The notes under the pieces were generated by a model. It did not search any database. It saw nothing but the letters and a program-made list of their open reading frames with translations, and was not told the DNA's origin. Below, piece by piece: positions 1 through 5,002 of a stretch of DNA of 7,086 bases; within the stretch, counting starts at the first letter, position 1; every line of letters begins with the position of its first letter. Made by a program: the position numbers and the translations under genes. Source of the DNA: Bacillota bacterium (GTDB lineage Bacteria > Bacillota_E > JAJZYS01 > JAILZS01). The stretch lies in assembly GCA_021817625.1 (NCBI GenBank), contig JAKASY010000095.1, forward strand, positions 1 through 7,086, written 5' to 3'.

Positions 1-435
1 GGCAACGTGGTGGAGCCGTTCGGCTGGCAGTACCAGAAGTCGATCGGCCTGTATCGCGACGTGCCCGGATGGGCGCTGGCCGCGACCGAGGGCGAGGGCG
101 TGCGCGCCGTGGTCGGAGGACGCGTGGTGGCAAACTGGGTCGATCCGACGGAGGGCCGCGAGGTTGTCGTGAACAGCCGCAATGGCGACTCCGTGATCTA
201 CGGCGACCTGGCGTCCCCTGGCCCGGCGGTGGGCACGGCGGTTGGCGCGGGCGAGATATTCGCGCACGTCGGCCCGAGCGGAAAGCTCTCGGGCGTCTCG
301 CAGCCGCATCTCTTCCTTGAGGTGACGGTTGGCGGCCAGCCGGTGTCGCCGTCGGTGCTCCTGGGCAACGTGCCCGGCGCCGACACCATGGCGACCGGCC
401 CGTCGCACGCCACGAGCTCGAGCACCAAGGCGTAG
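1..435 (+). CDS. Degenerate LytM/M23 domain protein, probable SpoIIQ (3' part)
   Basis: The open frame enters from the left edge, so the N-terminus (expected membrane anchor) is missing. The visible 144 residues follow the LytM/M23 beta-fold: an entry strand around EGEGVRAVVGGRVV, a central NGDSVIYGDL segment, the GxxxAHVGPSGK turn, and a final PHLFLEV strand before GGQPVSP. In active M23 peptidases the Zn ligands lie in an HxxxD motif and in HLHFE. Here the first motif is not recognisable and the second His is Leu (HLFLE), so it is probably not a peptidase. SpoIIQ-type proteins are LytM-fold partners of SpoIIIAH across the engulfment septum, and in some species lack ligands. Identity as SpoIIQ is inferred mainly from the adjacent spoIIID, since spoIIQ and spoIIID are neighbours in many spore formers. 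The C-terminus ends in a Ser/Thr-rich tail. Another degenerate M23 protein cannot be excluded. Confidence 0.75.
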   Translation, partial: GNVVEPFGWQYQKSIGLYRDVPGWALAATEGEGVRAVVGGRVVANWVDPTEGREVVVNSRNGDSVIYGDLASPGPAVGTAVGAGEIFAHVGPSGKLSGVSQPHLFLEVTVGGQPVSPSVLLGNVPGADTMATGPSHATSSSTKA

Positions 436-482: not shown

Positions 483-511
483 GCATCGCCGTTCGCGCGA
501 GCGCATACGCT
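483..511 (+). promoter_or_regulatory. Putative sigma-E-type promoter of spoIIID
   Basis: A -10 box CATACGCT at 504-511 differs at one informative position from the sigma-E consensus CATACAnT. A -35-like GCATCGC lies at 483-489 with a 14-nt spacer; it matches only the first half of the kmATATT consensus. The site lies 31 nt upstream of the spoIIID GTG. In Bacillus subtilis spoIIID is sigma-E-dependent. The same -10 octamer recurs in front of the recombinase operon at 2213-2220. Confidence 0.55.
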
Positions 512-549
512 TAGGCAAACTCGGAGGAAGGGGCCGCGAGGGTGAAAGA

Positions 550-597
550 CCACATCTGGAAGCGCGTGTTGGAAGGCGTACGTTCCTCTGCACACGC
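550..597. other. Putative attL of the spoIIID intervening element
   Basis: This is the junction of spoIIID coding DNA (to about 573) and element DNA (from 574). The shared core TGGA is at 570-573. The element-side arm 576-597, read in reverse complement, matches the opposite element arm 2243-2264 at 17 of 22 positions. That defines half of an attP-type site. The spoIIID-side half shows only weak symmetry, as is usual for attB halves of large serine recombinases. Confidence 0.75.
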
Positions 598-615
598 AAC
601 CGGATCCCCGCTTTC

Positions 616-652
616 GGCGCGGGCCGCACAGGGCGGCCCGCGCCCGTCTTTT
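616..652 (+). terminator. Intrinsic terminator inside the left end of the element
   Basis: A perfect 11-bp stem, 616-626 pairing with 634-644, has a 7-nt loop (cacaggg) and is followed by CGTCTTTT. The T-run is on the plus strand, so it should stop transcription coming from the spoIIID promoter. On the minus strand no U-tract follows the stem, so it does not look like the terminator of the recombinase gene, whose stop codon (651-653) lies at its edge. Confidence 0.8.
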
Positions 653-2030
653 AGGGCATAGCGCCGGCGAGCGTCAAAAGTGCCTGCGGGCCAGGCCCCA
701 GGGTCAGGGTGACGCCCAGGGCCGCCAGGACGAAGCGCTTGTCCTCGAGGGACGCCGCCGTGCGTGCCCGAGCTAGGACGGCAGCCACCGCCGAGGTCGC
801 GGCTCCTGCGTCGCTGACCTCCCCCTGAACGTGGGTAGGCTCCAGCGCGGCGGCTGCAGCGAGGGCGGAGAGCTGGCGCTCGAGCGTCGCCTCGTCGATG
901 AGGTCGTTGCGGTACGCGGCGACCAGCCGCTCGCGCTGGCGCTCGCGCCGCGCCTGGGCGTCGTGGATGGCCGGGCCGGCAGGCGCTGGACGTCGGGTCG
1001 CGACCAGGGCGGAGACCTCGCCTGCTCGACCCTCCGCAAGGAGGCTGCGCCGCAGGTGCTGCCACACGGCGGCGTCCAGGGCCTGCGCTGGGTAGTAGGC
1101 CGAGGGGCAGGGCGGGCGCGAGCGCTTGCCCGAGCAGGCGTAGCGATGGCGGTAGCCGCCTCCCATCCGGCGGCCGCACACGCCGCAGGTGAGGCGCCCC
1201 GTCAGCAGGTAGGGACGGCGCGCCGGCCCACGCGGCCGGTTGCGGCGGGCGCGCAGGCGCGCGCCTGCGCGCTCAAAGGCATCGCCCGCGACAAGCTGCG
1301 GCACCTCCACATACCCGGCTCCGCCCATCTGCGGCATGCGGCCCAGGTAGGTGGGGTTTGTCAGGATGCCGTAGACGCTCGTCTGCGACCATGGCCCGCC
1401 GTGCTTGGCGGCCACGCCGACCGCGTTCAGCCGTTCGGCGATGGCGTGGGTGCCGTGCTCCTCGGCCAGGCGAAAGATGTGGGCGACGACGGGCGCCTCG
1501 GCCGCGTCGGCGAGGAACCGGCCCCGGGCCTTGTCGTAGACGTAGCCGTAGATCGTGTGGCCACCGCCCACGGGACGGCCCTCACGGGCCCGCGCGAGCT
1601 TGCCGGCGGTCATGCGCTGGCGGATCTTGTGGGTTTCGAACTCCGCGATCGCGCCGCGCATGGCGAACAGGAGCCGGCCGTCGGCGCTCGCGGTCATGGC
1701 GAAGTTCGTGAACTCCACCTCCGCGCCGCCCCGCCGCATCTCGTCCACGAGCAGGAGGAGGTGGGCGAGGTTGCGCGAGAGGCGATCGGGGTCGTAGCAC
1801 ACGACCAGGGGCATGCGGCCAGCAGCGACGTCGGCCCGCAGGCGGTCCAGGGCGGGGCGCTCGAGTAGGGTGCCGGAGACGCCGGCGTCCACATAGGCGA
1901 CGACCGCCGAGGCGCCCAGGCGGCGGGCGTGGGCTTCACACTCGGCCAGCTGGCCTTCGAGGCTTGTGCCGTGCTCCGCCTGCTCGTCCGTCGAGACCCG
2001 CGCGTAGAGCGCGGCCGCCTTGGCTGTCAA
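651..2030 (-). CDS. Large serine recombinase (SpoIVCA-like) of the intervening element
   Basis: This is a 459-aa site-specific recombinase of the large serine (resolvase/invertase plus Recombinase domain) family. Counting from the TTG at 2030, the N-terminal catalytic domain has YARVSTDEQ with nucleophile Ser13 and Arg11, and YDPDRLSRN with Arg83 and Arg86. The Recombinase domain spans roughly 155-265 (GGPWSQTSVYGILTNPTYLGR region). A zinc ribbon follows with Cys282, Cys285, Cys299 and Cys308, then an Arg/Glu-rich probable coiled coil around 370-420. Motifs and domain order are intact, so it is likely active. The TTG start is chosen because it overlaps the TGA of the upstream 51-aa ORF (TTGA) and sits just before the conserved strand. 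A GTG at 2108 would add 26 Arg/Ala-rich residues with only a weak GGTGGA nearby. The gene is antisense to spoIIID and is the likely enzyme for excision. Confidence 0.95.
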   Translation of the reverse strand: MTAKAAALYARVSTDEQAEHGTSLEGQLAECEAHARRLGASAVVAYVDAGVSGTLLERPALDRLRADVAAGRMPLVVCYDPDRLSRNLAHLLLLVDEMRRGGAEVEFTNFAMTASADGRLLFAMRGAIAEFETHKIRQRMTAGKLARAREGRPVGGGHTIYGYVYDKARGRFLADAAEAPVVAHIFRLAEEHGTHAIAERLNAVGVAAKHGGPWSQTSVYGILTNPTYLGRMPQMGGAGYVEVPQLVAGDAFERAGARLRARRNRPRGPARRPYLLTGRLTCGVCGRRMGGGYRHRYACSGKRSRPPCPSAYYPAQALDAAVWQHLRRSLLAEGRAGEVSALVATRRPAPAGPAIHDAQARRERQRERLVAAYRNDLIDEATLERQLSALAAAAALEPTHVQGEVSDAGAATSAVAAVLARARTAASLEDKRFVLAALGVTLTLGPGPQALLTLAGAMP

Positions 2031-2182
2031 GCGCGCGCGGGCGTCGGCTCGGGCGGCGGGGCTGGCGGCGCATCGACCCCGTCCGGAGCGCCCCGCAGGC
2101 GCAGCCACGCGTCCACCAGACGGGCAAGGGCCTCAAGCCGCTCCTCCGCTCGGGTCGCGTCCACCACCCTTGGCGCCTCCAA
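2027..2182 (-). CDS. 51-aa protein coupled to the recombinase; candidate directionality factor
   Basis: A TTG at 2182 is preceded at 7 nt by a near-perfect ribosome site, GGAGGTGA (2190-2197 in reverse). The ORF encodes 51 residues and its TGA overlaps the TTG of the recombinase gene in a TTGA, a typical sign of translational coupling. The N-terminal half is charged and looks helical (RAEERLEALARLVDAWLRLR); the C-terminal third is rich in Pro and Ala. I recognise no family. By position and size it could be a recombination directionality factor or other partner of the recombinase. SprB, the 58-aa factor that drives SPbeta excision during B. subtilis sporulation, is a functional precedent, not a sequence match. 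The ORF lies wholly inside the element. It could also be only a leader that delivers ribosomes to the recombinase start. Confidence 0.6.
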   Translation of the reverse strand: MEAPRVVDATRAEERLEALARLVDAWLRLRGAPDGVDAPPAPPPEPTPARA

Positions 2183-2212
2183 CCCCGCCTCACCTCCGAA
2201 CTCGTCCGCTTG

Positions 2213-2242
2213 AGCGTATGCCCGGGCCCGACCGGGCAATGC
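2213..2242 (-). promoter_or_regulatory. Putative sigma-E-type promoter of the recombinase operon
   Basis: On the minus strand, GCATTGC (2242-2236) and CATACGCT (2220-2213) are separated by 15 nt. The -10 octamer is identical to the one before spoIIID (504-511) and the -35 differs from it by one base. The start site would fall about 2205, just ahead of the GGAGGTGA ribosome site of the 51-aa ORF. The promoter is inside the element and abuts the attP arm, so it would stay with the circle after excision. Confidence 0.5.
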
Positions 2243-2290
2243 GCGTGCGCAGGCGAACGGCCGCTGGAGATCGGCGACTACATCCTGGTC
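2243..2290. other. Putative attR of the spoIIID intervening element
   Basis: This is the junction of element DNA (to about 2268) and spoIIID coding DNA. The element arm 2243-2264 (begins GCGTGCGCAG) is the partner of the arm at 576-597. The core TGGA is at 2265-2268. The codons just inside the element, read in the spoIIID frame, happen to give ERPLE, similar to the true KRVLE at the other end, so the break is easy to overlook. Confidence 0.75.
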
Positions 2291-2497
2291 AGCCGCGAGA
2301 CGGTACGCGAGGCGGCGCGCCAGTTCGGTGTGTCGAAGAGTACCGTGCACAAGGACCTGACCGAGCGCCTTCCCCGCATCAATCCGCAAATGGCCGCGGA
2401 TGTGAAGCACGTCCTGGACTACAACAAGTCCGAACGGCACATCCGCGGCGGAGAAGCCACACGCAAGAAGTTCCTGGAGCGCGAGCTGCAGCCCTAG
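2269..2497 (+). CDS. spoIIID: spoIIID 3' segment: SpoIIID sporulation regulator, DNA-binding part
   Basis: From IGDYILVSRETV onward the translation follows SpoIIID to the end: the helix-turn-helix VREAARQFGVSKSTVHKDL, then TERLPRIN, and the basic C-terminal region with DYNKSERHIRGGEATRKKF. This part supplies 75 residues; with the 11 from 542-573 the protein is 86 aa, against 93 in B. subtilis. The native start codon, ribosome site and promoter are absent here. The open frame does continue leftward into the element to 1964, but through unrelated, antisense-of-recombinase sequence, and no start with a ribosome site is seen near the junction. The regulator is therefore expected to be made only after excision. 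The coding sequence itself shows no damage, which argues that the split gene is still under selection. Confidence 0.93.
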
Positions 2498-2515
2498 GGC
2501 GCCGCGCGCCGCGCG

Positions 2516-2698
2516 TTACTCGGGACGCCGGACGAGGCTGACCGTGAGCACGGCGGGCACGCCGAGCAGCACGAGCACCCCGTCTAGCGCCCCGAGCGGC
2601 CCGTGCAGCAGCCAGGCCAACGCCATGAGGGCGACGCCGCCCCACAGGAGGTACGGGTCCCCCACGACGAAGTGGTAGAGCCAGAGGACGGCCTTCAT
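2516..2698 (-). CDS. Small two-helix membrane protein
   Basis: A 60-aa ORF. Its ATG (2698-2696) overlaps the TGA of the upstream FTR1-type gene as ATGA, and GGGAGG lies 7 nt before it. It begins MKAVLWLYHFVVGDPYLL and has two hydrophobic stretches, about 17-33 (loosely) and 35-53, with a short loop between them, ending VRRPE. I cannot assign a family. The overlap implies it is made with, and may associate with, the FTR1-type permease. It converges with spoIIID, with only 18 nt between the stops and no clear terminator there. Confidence 0.75.
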   Translation of the reverse strand: MKAVLWLYHFVVGDPYLLWGGVALMALAWLLHGPLGALDGVLVLLGVPAVLTVSLVRRPE

Positions 2699-3462
2699 TG
2701 CACGGCCTCCCGCGCCTGGAGGTTGGCCTCCGGGCGCCGGTGCATGGCGGACACGACAACGACGCTGTAGACGATCAGCGCCGCAAGCAGGACAAGCACG
2801 AACACCTCGCCGCCGGGCCAGCTCACGCCGACGCCCTCCCCGGCCCAGAAGGCGCCGAACGTCGTCAGCATCAAGCCGACCACGAATTTGAGAAGGTTCT
2901 CCGGCACACGGGAGAGCGGGCTGCGCAGCGCCACGCCCGCGGCGCCGACGATCACGAACGCCGCGACGGCGCCGCTGGCCGCAAGGCCGAGCGCGCCACG
3001 CACGTTCGTGCCCGAAGCCACGGCCACGATAATCAGCGCAACCTCGAGCCCCTCGAGCAGCGTGCCGTTGAACGCCGTCGCGAAGCCCTCGGCGTCTAGC
3101 CCAGCACTCGCGCGGCCGCTCTTCGACAGGGCCTCCACCTGGTGGGCATAGATGACGTCCTCGGCGTGCAGCGCCTTGCGCCCGCTCTGGCGCAGGATGG
3201 CCTTCTTGAGCCACTTGAGGCCGAAGAGAAGAAGGAAGAGGCCGACGATGACCCGGAGCACGCCAATGGGCACGAGATGGAGCACCTCGATGCCGAAGAC
3301 GCCGATCACGACGAGAAGAACGGCGATGGCGGCGGTGGCACCGACGAGGGCGCTGCGCCAGCCGCGGCTGACGCCAGCGGCCAGCACGATCGTCAGCGCC
3401 TCCACCATCTCCACCGACGACGCGAGGAACGCGACCAGCACGGTGGGAAGATAGGTCGCCAG
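2695..3462 (-). CDS. FTR1/COG4280-type integral membrane protein, CTG start
   Basis: A 255-aa polytopic membrane protein with about six to seven hydrophobic segments. Two ExxE-type motifs sit in membrane segments: VEMVEA (Glu18, Glu21) near the N-terminus and LEGLE (Glu137, Glu140) in the middle. This resembles the paired REGLE motifs of FTR1 iron permeases and the related COG4280 family. The first motif lacks the Arg, so iron as substrate is uncertain; another metal ion is possible. The start is unusual: AAGGAGG (3476-3470) is 7 nt upstream of a CTG (3462), whereas the first conventional start, GTG at 3441, is 28 nt away and would cut into the first helix. The upstream frame closes with TAA just before the ribosome site. 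It is divergent from metK and coupled to the 60-aa gene. Confidence 0.8.
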   Translation of the reverse strand: MATYLPTVLVAFLASSVEMVEALTIVLAAGVSRGWRSALVGATAAIAVLLVVIGVFGIEVLHLVPIGVLRVIVGLFLLLFGLKWLKKAILRQSGRKALHAEDVIYAHQVEALSKSGRASAGLDAEGFATAFNGTLLEGLEVALIIVAVASGTNVRGALGLAASGAVAAFVIVGAAGVALRSPLSRVPENLLKFVVGLMLTTFGAFWAGEGVGVSWPGGEVFVLVLLAALIVYSVVVVSAMHRRPEANLQAREAVQ

Positions 3463-3503
3463 ATCGCTCCCTCCTTAATACAGCCGGAAGGCAGGGTTCG
3501 CGC

Positions 3504-3523
3504 CCGGCCGTGGGGACGGCCGG
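3504..3523 (-). other. Hairpin in the leader of the FTR1-type gene
   Basis: CCGGCCGT (3504-3511) and ACGGCCGG (3516-3523) form a perfect 8-bp inverted repeat with a GGGG/CCCC loop, about 40 nt upstream of the CTG start. No T-run follows on either strand. Further upstream, CCTATGTTGCCTTAGG (3553-3568) has CCTA/TAGG ends loosely like DtxR/MntR-family operators, which would suit a metal transporter. Both are weak regulatory candidates, and no riboswitch family is recognised. Confidence 0.3.
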
Positions 3524-3614
3524 CGTTGGGTTCGATGCGCTTCCGCTCACGACCTATGTTGCCTTAGGGCGCGGTCGAGGTCCAGCGCGCCCGCCGCAGT
3601 GCCATTCGCCCGCG

Positions 3615-3643
3615 TTGACGGGCAGGGGGGGCGATGATACACT
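3615..3643 (+). promoter_or_regulatory. Sigma-A promoter of metK
   Basis: TTGACG (3615-3620), a 17-nt spacer, then TACACT (3638-3643) with an extended TGn just before it (TGA at 3635-3637). A start near 3650 leaves a leader of about 90 nt. The ATG at 3634 overlaps the -10 region and therefore cannot be the metK start. Confidence 0.65.
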
Positions 3644-3645
3644 CG

Positions 3646-3691
3646 GCCCGATTTCGGGCGGCTCAAGCGCCCTCCGACCTTGGTCGGGAGG
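3646..3691 (+). other. Structured metK leader (two hairpins)
   Basis: GCCCGA/TCGGGC (3646-3651 with 3654-3659) forms a tight hairpin at the predicted transcript start. CCTCCGACC (3671-3679) pairs with 3682-3691 with one bulged G. Neither is followed by a T-run. Many Bacillota control metK by SAM riboswitches, but I do not find the conserved SAM-I core here; any SAM sensing would be by an unrecognised structure. Confidence 0.35.
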
Positions 3692-3741
3692 CATGGCGGC
3701 CGCCCGCGACGCTTTCCGAGGCACGGAAGGAGCGCGGTCTG

Positions 3742-4938
3742 TTGGCGCGACGCCTGTTTACGTCGGAGTCGGTGACCGAGGGTCACCCGGACAAGGTGGC
3801 CGACCAGATATCTGACGCCATCCTTGACGAGATCCTGGCCCTCGACCCGGAGGCGAGCGTGGCGGCGGAGACCCTGGTGACCACGGGCCTCGTCGTCGTC
3901 GCGGGCGAGATATCGACCCAGGTGTACGTGGACGTGCCCCGCGTCGTCCGCTCCACCCTGCGTGAGATCGGCTATACGCGCGCGAAGTTCGGCTTCGACG
4001 CCGACACCTGCGCGGTTCTCACCTCGATCGACGAGCAGTCGGCCGACATCCGGGCCGGTGTCGAGCACCCGCTGGAGGAGCGCCTCGGCGGTTCCATCGA
4101 GGCCGGCGACATCGGCGCCGGCGACCAGGGCATGATGTTCGGCTTCGCCTGCCGCGAGACCGATGTCCTTATGCCGCTCCCGATCTCCCTCGCGCACCAG
4201 CTGGCGCGTCGCCTGGCCGAGGTGCGAAAGAGCGGAGTCGTTCCCTTCATCTGGCCCGACGGCAAGACACAGGTGACCGTGGCGTACGAGGGCAGCGTGC
4301 CGGTCGCCGTCGACACCGTTGTGGTGAGCACGCAGCACATGCCGGACGTGGACCCGGATGAGCTGTCCGAGGCGGTGCGGCGAGAGGTGGTCGAGAGCAT
4401 CGTGCCGCCGGCCCTTCTCGACGGGGCCCGGGTGCTCGTGAACCCGTCGGGGCGCTTCGTCTTGGGCGGCCCGCAGGCGGACACCGGACTCACCGGGCGG
4501 AAGATCATCGTGGACACGTATGGCGGCTACGCCCGCCACGGCGGCGGCGCGTTCTCCGGCAAGGACCCCACCAAGGTCGACCGGTCAGGCGCGTATGCGG
4601 CCCGGTACGTCGCCAAGAACCTTGTCGCGTCGGGACTGTGCGACCGGTGCGAGGTCCAGCTCGCGTACGCGATCGGCGTGGCCGAGCCCGTATCGGTGCG
4701 CGTCGACACGTTCGGCAGTGGCCGCGTGAGCGACGACCGCCTGGTGGAGCTGGTGCGGCGCCACTTCGACCTCCGGCCCGCGGCGATCATCCGCACCCTC
4801 GGCCTCAGGCGTCCGATCTACCGCCGCCTGGCGGCCTACGGGCACTTCGGCCGCGGCGACCTGGAGGCGCCGTGGGAGCGCACCGACATGGCGGACACGC
4901 TGCGCGCCGATGCCGCGGTCGGCAGCATGGGGCGCTAG
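3742..4938 (+). CDS. metK: S-adenosylmethionine synthetase (methionine adenosyltransferase)
   Basis: Makes S-adenosylmethionine from ATP and methionine in the cytoplasm; Mg2+- and K+-dependent. The 398-aa product has full family length. Signature motifs are intact: [13 protein letters not shown] at about 6-18, [16 protein letters not shown] at about 126-141, the glycine-rich [16 protein letters not shown] at about 269-284, and the C-terminal [18 protein letters not shown]. The start is TTG at 3742, because GGAAGGAG (3725-3732) is 9 nt upstream and the conserved ARRLFTSES follows at once. The longer open frame to 3634 runs through the promoter and a structured leader. A potential hairpin (4965-5002), not a canonical terminator, follows the gene. 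Confidence 0.97.
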
Positions 4939-4964
4939 CACGGCGCAGTCCGCTGCCATAGCCT

Positions 4965-5002
4965 GGGGCACCGAAAAAGGGGAGTGAGACCCTTGGTGCC
5001 CC
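4965..5002 (+). other. Hairpin overlapping the start of the next gene
   Basis: GGGGCACC (4965-4972) pairs with GGTGCCCC (4995-5002), and inside it AAGGG (4977-4981) pairs with CCCTT (4990-4994), leaving a GAAA bulge. The structure contains both the ribosome site AAGGGGAG (4977-4984) and the TTG start (4993). If formed it would hide the start of the following gene. There is no long T-run after it, so it is a poor terminator for metK. Confidence 0.5.

What the first reader, a model, noticed from the sequence alone, without database searches (positions are those of the whole stretch)
542..2497. spoIIID split by a recombinase-encoding intervening element
The first 11 codons of spoIIID, with their promoter and ribosome site, lie at 542-573. 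The remaining 75 codons lie at 2269-2497. Removing 574-2268 joins them in frame (KRVLE to IGDYI) and rebuilds a complete 86-aa SpoIIID. A serine recombinase gene lies between. Known sporulation genes split in this way include sigK (skin) and several late genes such as spsM, spoVFB, spoVR and gerE. I know of no description of such a split in spoIIID. It would place a DNA rearrangement early in the mother-cell cascade, at the regulator that in B. subtilis promotes sigK expression.
Basis: partly seen in the sequence, partly recalled or inferred. Interest (0 to 1): 0.95.

Follow-up and report, generated by a model that had tools for sequence, protein, structure and literature searches.

The report
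Spore regulator gene split by recombinase
In this contig, and judging from one or both halves in 16 related bacterial genomes, the gene for an early spore-formation regulator, SpoIIID, is cut in two by a DNA element carrying its own recombinase, which is predicted to cut the element out so that the gene would work again during spore formation.

Summary
Confirmed. spoIIID is split after codon 10 by a 1,695-bp element (about 574-2268). The joined halves give an 86-aa SpoIIID scoring 141.6 bits against TIGR02844 (cut-off 111.5); the second half alone matches no family. The element holds a large serine recombinase (LSR, 651-2030 minus) and a 51-aa ORF overlapping it by 4 bp: a candidate directionality factor.

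The same LSR clade occurs in 16 of 154 class genomes, each time beside a spoIIID half broken at the same codon, and in none of the 113 whose SpoIIID match starts at residue 1-3. GA lies at all ends seen; the predicted circle junction is palindromic around it in 8 of 9. Exon 2 shows dN/dS 0.00-0.06. In the window the same promoter-like motif (GCATYGC-N14-CATACGCT) precedes both spoIIID and the recombinase operon. An uninterrupted relative (G069) has the predicted joined sequence. G070 and G072 have broken sigK too; G331 and G343 have spoIIID split at other codons beside other LSRs.

Excision is untested; mother-cell timing and the small protein's role are inferred. Papers seen describe split sigK, spoVFB, spoVR, spsM, gerE and yabG, not spoIIID.

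The parts
483..511 (+). predicted spoIIID promoter: -35 GCATCGC (483-489), 14-bp spacer, -10 CATACGCT (504-511)
   Evidence: sequence; one of three CATANNNT sites in the whole window on both strands
542..573 (+). spoIIID exon 1 (codons 1-10 plus GA of codon 11), followed in the unexcised state by read-through to a stop after 39 aa in all
   Evidence: in 12 sequences the variable sites of the ten codons by codon position are 1, 1, 5, while 30 of the next 30 element bases vary
572..573 (+). left crossover core GA (attL centre)
   Evidence: GA at this place in 12 of 12 exon-1 ends
574..2268 (.). intervening element, 1,695 bp
616..654 (+). intrinsic-terminator-like hairpin (12 GC pairs, then a T run), which would stop spoIIID transcription inside the element
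651..2030 (-). large serine recombinase, 459 aa (Resolvase, Recombinase, zinc-ribbon domains)
   Evidence: phrog_95 integrase 5.7e-87
2027..2182 (-). small ORF, 51 aa, overlapping the LSR start by 4 bp; candidate recombination directionality factor
   Evidence: a small ORF lies just upstream of the LSR in 16 of 16 elements examined (starts chosen by hand); no family match better than E 0.13
2213..2242 (-). predicted promoter of the small ORF-LSR operon: -35 GCATTGC (2236-2242), 14-bp spacer, -10 CATACGCT (2213-2220)
   Evidence: CATANNNT in 15 of 16 elements against 0.73 expected
2267..2268 (+). right crossover core GA (attR centre); predicted attP formed with 574 onward is palindromic at 17 of 25 positions
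   Evidence: GA at 15 of 15 right ends; dyad
2269..2497 (+). spoIIID exon 2 (last base of codon 11 to stop)
   Evidence: window against G050 over 66 codons: 21 synonymous, 1 nonsynonymous difference
1..435 (+). context: C-terminal part of an M23 peptidase, in the place before spoIIID also in relatives

Best explanation
The window's spoIIID is split after codon 10 by a 1,695-bp element encoding a large serine recombinase and, upstream of it, a predicted small protein, and this element is predicted to be excised precisely in the sporulating mother cell, which would rejoin an 86-aa SpoIIID. Predicted mechanism: in growing cells the spoIIID promoter yields at most a stub that ends at a terminator inside the element. 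When the mother-cell sigma factor appears (sigma-E in B. subtilis), the like promoter inside the element would switch on the small ORF and the recombinase. The recombinase, probably with the small protein as directionality factor, would recombine attL and attR at a GA dinucleotide, release a circle and rebuild spoIIID. The forespore chromosome would keep the element, so the split is inherited. Shown here: the split, its recurrence, the att anatomy, selection on the parts, the motifs. Inferred: excision, its timing, the sigma factor, the role of the small protein.
For: Joined protein 141.6 bits to TIGR02844, half alone none. LSR clade in 16 of 154 class genomes, each beside a spoIIID half; of the 113 class genomes whose SpoIIID match starts at residue 1-3 none has it. 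GA at 12 of 12 left and 15 of 15 right ends. attP dyad centred on GA at p<0.05 in 8 of 9 elements, against 1 of 9 for attB. Empty site in G069 encodes KRVLEVSRYISRTK, the predicted join of G072. Exon 2 dN/dS 0.00-0.06 in 12 pairs with finite dS; LSR 0.12-0.19 in five pairs, all of group B. CATANNNT upstream of 15 of 16 element operons (0.73 expected), against 2 of 17 metK upstreams and 63 of 1434 pieces cut from the same loci. Small ORF in 16 of 16. spoIVA match in 16 of 16 split genomes, over its cut-off in 15. Exon 1 supplies residues 1-10 where an intact relative is predicted to have a helix at 3-19. Precedents with small RDFs: GirX 42 aa (PMC5595907 passages), CD1234 72 aa under sigma-E and SpoIIID (PMC5025042 passages).
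Against: No excision product was seen: no intact protein of the split G003 type among the 120 listed of 8000 scored hits. Exon 1 is also the attB/attL arm, so recombinase binding may constrain it. The motif was chosen after I had looked at the upstream sequences, and the elements are related. Strict CATANNNT lies upstream of spoIIID itself in only 2 of 12 loci, window and G050; the others have CATA with another continuation. It lies upstream of spoIVA in only 1 of 9 loci found. The -35 box differs between groups; sigma-E and sigma-K -10 boxes are alike (recalled). G070 lacks the motif and its dyad has p=0.096. In the window and G050 the LSR operon lies in the opposite orientation to the others. 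The window's own genome is not held. The small ORF product is untested.
Confidence: 0.77

Rival explanations
1. Ordinary mobile element that happens to sit in spoIIID and leaves only rarely and at random; there is no developmental control, and a minority of cells with a healed gene suffices.
For: Elements carry varied cargo (G072 sugar isomerase-like and epimerase genes, G070 MacB-type ABC transporter). Uninterrupted relatives lie near split ones: SpoIVA groups intact G069 with split G072 (87/88) and split G050 with intact G049 and G058 (99/97). Strict CATANNNT is absent before spoIIID in 10 of 12 loci.
Against: Sporulation-type motif in front of the operon in 15 of 16 elements; within group B the MetK and LSR trees divide the hosts into the same halves, which points to long vertical descent; elements of about 2 kb without cargo keep the LSR under purifying selection.
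Confidence: 0.14
2. Truncated SpoIIID: exon 2 is translated alone from a start at or near the element's right end and the ten missing residues are dispensable; exon 1 is a relic kept as recombinase site.
For: In groups B and C many elements have ATG or GTG just before GA, and database entries hold such fragments (P0001, P0094, P0113, P0238).
Against: Window and G050 have CTG there, G002 ACG and G004 GCG, and fragments have unlike N-termini; exon 1 varies mostly at third codon positions (1, 1, 5); the missing residues form about half of predicted helix 1; exon 2 alone reaches no family.
Confidence: 0.05
3. Dead insertion in a lineage that has lost sporulation or no longer needs SpoIIID.
For: No expression data; genomes are fragmentary.
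Against: dN/dS near zero on exon 2 in split lineages, exon frames kept in 17 loci, spoIVA match in 16 of 16, sigK over its cut-off in G003, G004, G050, G053, G073.
Confidence: 0.03

Closest known systems
gin element in gerE of Bacillus cereus ATCC10987 (PMC5595907: abstract, introduction, discussion and passages seen)
   Same: Non-phage element with a serine recombinase and a small directionality protein (GirC, GirX 42 aa) splitting a small mother-cell transcription-factor gene.
   Different: gin is 28.6 kb with three recombinase genes, in a late gene; here 1.7-7.5 kb with one recombinase of a separate clade, in spoIIID, recurring in 17 loci.
skin element in sigK, C. difficile and B. subtilis (PMC5025042: abstract and passages seen)
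   Same: LSR-mediated excision rebuilding a mother-cell regulator; in C. difficile the RDF CD1234 is under sigma-E and SpoIIID.
   Different: Target gene and step: here SpoIIID itself would need rebuilding, so its excision could hardly depend on SpoIIID.
SP-beta in spsM (PMC4191935, passages seen), vfbin in spoVFB and vrin in spoVR (named there), yin in yabG (PMC10747680, passages seen)
   Same: Sporulation gene split by an element with its own recombinase.
   Different: Prophage or prophage-like; other target genes.
Staphylococcal cassette recombinases CcrA/B/C
   Same: CcrB is the best NCBIfam match of the LSR (118.6 bits).
   Different: Far below the cut-off of 900 bits; other target, no resistance cassette.

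Membership tests
sporulation gene-intervening elements | splits a sporulation gene so that removal restores the frame | tested here: met
sporulation gene-intervening elements | encodes a serine recombinase inside the element | tested here: met
sporulation gene-intervening elements | att sites with a short shared core at both ends and a dyad in the element's own site | tested here: met
   GA at 12 of 12 left and 15 of 15 right ends; dyad p<0.05 in 8 of 9
sporulation gene-intervening elements | directionality factor in the element | tested here: inconclusive
   small ORF in 16 of 16, no confident family match, function unknown
sporulation gene-intervening elements | excision specific to sporulation | not testable with these tools
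   no reads or cultures; only promoter-like motifs
prophage(-like) elements | phage structural or replication genes in the element | tested here: not met
   no gene other than LSR and small ORF recognised in the window element; Pfam matches of the G070 and G072 cargo are not phage-like
large serine recombinases | Resolvase, Recombinase and zinc-ribbon domains; conserved serine of the YARVST motif (its catalytic role is recalled) | tested here: met
   (invariant Y35 R37 V38 S39 in 44 sequences)
SpoIIID (TIGR02844) | joined protein above curated cut-off | tested here: met
   141.6 against 111.5 bits

The most novel reading that the evidence does not exclude
spoIIID is a recurrent target of programmed DNA excision: a dedicated two-gene cassette (small protein plus LSR), switched on by the same sigma factor as spoIIID itself, makes one of the first mother-cell transcription factors after sigma-E depend on cutting the chromosome; in G070 and G072 two excisions in series, spoIIID and then sigK, would drive one cell fate; and other lineages (G331, G343) reached the same arrangement independently at the DNA-recognition codons.
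Probability: 0.58. Interest if true: 0.9.

Novelty: new variant of a known kind. Interest (0 to 1): 0.82.

Why it matters
It would move irreversible DNA rearrangement to an early regulator downstream of sigma-E in the mother cell, upstream of sigK and, in C. difficile, of skin excision itself. Seven of the nine elements measured end to end are 1.7-2.2 kb with one recombinase and one small ORF, and the arrangement recurs in 17 loci, which makes the old question of why sporulation genes are split (parasite or timing device) open to comparison. The cassettes are also compact new LSR/att/RDF candidates.

Tried and rejected
Rejected: assembly artefact (17 loci, many assemblies); chance open frame (joined score and recurrence); pseudogene (dN/dS). 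Viral contigs searched with the LSR gave 4 and 44 loci, none with SpoIIID beside it. The genome scan with the LSR alignment kept the best 80 of 503; SpoIIID exon 2 lay beside the LSR in five of them and exon 1 in a sixth. The LSR query in 398 phylum genomes gave 19 hits: G002, G003 and 17 weaker ones (206-239 bits) whose surroundings I did not look at. The search for a reconstituted protein found none among 120 listed. The SpoIVA promoter comparison did not confirm the motif: my motif search found 7, then 9 loci, with related boxes (ATATAGAT type) but strict CATANNNT in 1 of 9. The SpoIVA tree holds 9 rows because the same motif search dropped other loci; the MetK tree has 18 rows of 26 possible. 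Some partial sigK matches are contig ends (G054), so only those checked are used. In the phylum sample 322 of 398 genomes matched SpoIIID; only the better rows were printed, of which G003 and G002 alone started past residue 5; I then examined the 13 weakest; the unprinted middle rows were not checked. On re-checking I lowered the main odds slightly (0.80 to 0.77; novel case 0.60 to 0.58) and raised the first rival (0.12 to 0.14), because strict CATANNNT is missing before spoIIID in 10 of 12 loci, and I withdrew a claim that the LSR and host trees conflict.
Full report
OBSERVATION. The window is a whole 7,086-bp contig (one search lists its LSR on a contig of that length) and no genome is held for it. 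spoIIID begins with GTG at 542 and is open for ten codons plus GA; the rest lies at 2269-2497. The joined 86-aa protein reaches 132.3 bits against Pfam SpoIIID and 141.6 against TIGR02844, cut-off 111.5; exon 2 alone matches nothing at E<=0.001 in either. Unexcised, exon 1 reads to a stop after 39 aa in all, and a 12-pair GC hairpin with a T run at 616-654 lies just past it.

ELEMENT. The LSR has Resolvase, Recombinase and zinc-ribbon domains and matches phage integrase family phrog_95 (5.7e-87). Its start is most likely TTG 2030, since a 51-aa ORF (2027-2182, minus) overlaps it there by 4 bp. All 16 elements whose LSR 5' end is in the assembly have a small ORF (30-65 aa) just upstream, with starts chosen by hand; 8 of 16 overlap the LSR by 4 bp. 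They share a short core (A-L/I/W-x-x-L) and have no confident Pfam or PHROG match among those searched: seven against Pfam, three against PHROGs. In two subgroups of B the variable sites by codon position are 6, 6, 12 and 13, 7, 19. Known directionality factors are of like size: GirX 42 aa (PMC5595907 passages), CD1234 72 aa (PMC5025042 passages). That this is an RDF is an inference.

RECURRENCE. Groups: A, window and G050; B, G001-G006 and G051-G054; C, G068 and G070-G073. A search of 154 genomes of the class of G003 found SpoIIID matches in 129. Two are weak and not SpoIIID-like (G064, G127). Of the other 127, 113 match from residue 1-3 and 14 only from residue 6-9. The window's LSR as query (E<=1e-60) hits 16 of the same 154: those 14 plus G051 and G071, and none of the 113. 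In G051 and G071 exon 1 and the LSR are present and the contig lacks exon 2. Counting the window, 17 loci: both exons in 10 (G002 on two contigs), exon 2 only in 5, exon 1 only in 2. Nine elements could be measured: 1695 (window), 1747, 2069, 2073, 2075, 2101, 2157, 4889 and 7450 bp. The two largest carry cargo: a TIM-barrel sugar isomerase-like gene, an epimerase and an unmatched gene in G072; MacB-type permease, ABC ATPase and HlyD in G070. In group A the small ORF and LSR point against spoIIID, in the others along it.

ATT SITES. GA of codon 11 is present at 12 of 12 left and 15 of 15 right ends. Joining the element's own ends gives a site palindromic around GA: 17 of 25 positions in the window (0 of 2000 shuffles of the arms as good), p<0.05 in 8 of 9 elements, p=0.096 in G070; the host site shows this in 1 of 9. 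A symmetric site around the central dinucleotide is the usual form of an LSR attP (PMC5595907 discussion). In all nine the join continues the SpoIIID frame.

EMPTY SITES. G069, a relative of group C by SpoIVA, has an uninterrupted gene beginning VKDHIWKRVLEVSRYISRTK, identical over these 20 residues to the predicted join of G072. Database proteins P0003 and P0016 are uninterrupted with KRVLEIGDYI and KRAIEVADYI, beside the window's predicted KRVLEIGDYI and group B's KRALEVADYI.

SELECTION. Over 66 codons exon 2 differs between window and G050 by 21 synonymous and 1 nonsynonymous changes. dN/dS in 12 split-split and split-intact pairs with finite dS is 0.00-0.06 (several dS values exceed 1; the G068-G070 pair is saturated); one intact-intact pair gave 0.13. 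The LSR gave 0.12-0.19 in five pairs, all of group B. Exon 1 in 12 sequences varies at 1, 1 and 5 sites of codon positions 1, 2, 3, while all 30 following element bases vary; part of this may be constraint on the recombinase site. AlphaFold on intact P0003 puts residues 3-19 in one helix (mean pLDDT 87 and 96 for residues 1-10 and 11-20), so exon 2 alone would lack about half of it.

PROMOTERS. CATANNNT occurs three times in the window on both strands: 504 (before spoIIID), 2220 minus (before the small ORF-LSR operon) and 4957; the first two share GCAT-C/T-GC at 14 bp spacing and the same octamer CATACGCT. It occurs upstream of 15 of 16 element operons, 0.73 expected from shuffles, in 2 of 17 metK upstreams and in 63 of 1434 pieces cut from the same 16 loci. 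Cautions: I chose motif and region after reading the sequences; the elements are related; strict CATANNNT precedes spoIIID in only 2 of 12 loci, the rest having CATA followed otherwise, and spoIVA in 1 of 9. That the box resembles sigma-E/sigma-K -10 boxes is recalled; SP-beta sprB is reported to use such a promoter (PMC4191935 passage).

HISTORY. In a tree of 61 LSRs that I chose and the loci, all 16 spoIIID LSRs fall on one side of a branch (100/99) against the four sigK LSRs, within a group of 39 rows; the other 23 are database proteins whose place I did not see, four of them at zero distance from one of the 16. A and C join (98/87), B stands apart (100/100). MetK also puts A with C, but weakly (59/83), so the deep history is open. 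Within B the LSR and MetK trees make the same two halves (LSR 100/96 and 100/99; MetK 94/96 and 89/93), which suggests long vertical descent. SpoIVA groups split G050 with intact G049 and G058 (99/97) and intact G069 with split G072 (87/88), so the element comes and goes.

TWO BREAKS IN ONE CASCADE, AND OTHER LINEAGES. sigK is over its cut-off in G003, G004, G050, G053 and G073. In G072 the sigK N-half ends near residue 118 with an LSR after it and a C-half-like piece lies on another contig; in G070 the C-half starts near residue 115 directly after an LSR, and its N-half was not among the listed rows. Both also have split spoIIID. In a sample of 398 genomes of the phylum, 322 matched SpoIIID and the 13 weakest were examined: G331 has exon 1 and exon 2 on one contig 6.7 kb apart, broken at codons 35-38, with AAA/DUF4143, N6-methylase and LSR genes between and mbl next; G343 has the two parts on two contigs with an LSR beside exon 2. 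These two LSRs are 36% identical to each other and that of G343 is 28% identical to the window's. So spoIIID has been hit at another place by other recombinases.

LITERATURE. Searches for spoIIID with intervening element, serine recombinase and excision, interrupted and prophage, split gene, DNA rearrangement, and on rearranged sporulation genes generally, led to papers on split sigK, spoVFB, spoVR, spsM, gerE and yabG (passages). SpoIIID appears as a regulator in the passages seen of PMC5025042, PMC4191935 and PMC6957869; its one mention in PMC5595907 was not among the passages shown; PMC10747680 and PMC8987985 do not name it. Most subscription papers and all bioRxiv preprints are outside that library.

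VERDICT. A real, recurring, selected split of spoIIID with the anatomy of a site-specific excision system; excision, timing and RDF role remain to be shown.

Noticed in passing
L277, L279 (G072, G070); L281-L284 (G058, G069): sigK is broken near residue 114 with LSRs of another clade beside it in these genomes; G070 and G072 have both sigK and spoIIID interrupted.
   Followed up: partly
G007 and G067: sigK matches break near residue 145 instead of 114, and no SpoIIID match was found in these genomes.
   Followed up: no
L314 (G331) 1230-8162; L315 and L316 (G343): spoIIID broken at codons 35-38 beside other LSRs; in G331 the element carries an AAA/DUF4143 gene and an N6 DNA methylase.
   Followed up: partly
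L317 (G171) 2100-2290 and 8040-8320: The 5' part of spoIIID is present twice: a copy that breaks off after STVH, and about 5.9 kb on a near-copy of the upstream region lacking about 27 bp but fused to the rest of the gene; no recombinase was recognised among the ORFs tested between.
   Followed up: no
window 4957-4964 +: The third CATANNNT site of the window lies just ahead of the 127-aa ORF at 4984, which matches no Pfam or NCBIfam family; possibly a sporulation-regulated gene.
   Followed up: no
L178 (G070) 3968-8063 minus; L171 (G072) 885-3834: Cargo genes inside the spoIIID elements: MacB-type ABC transporter set; sugar isomerase-like, epimerase and unmatched genes.
   Followed up: partly
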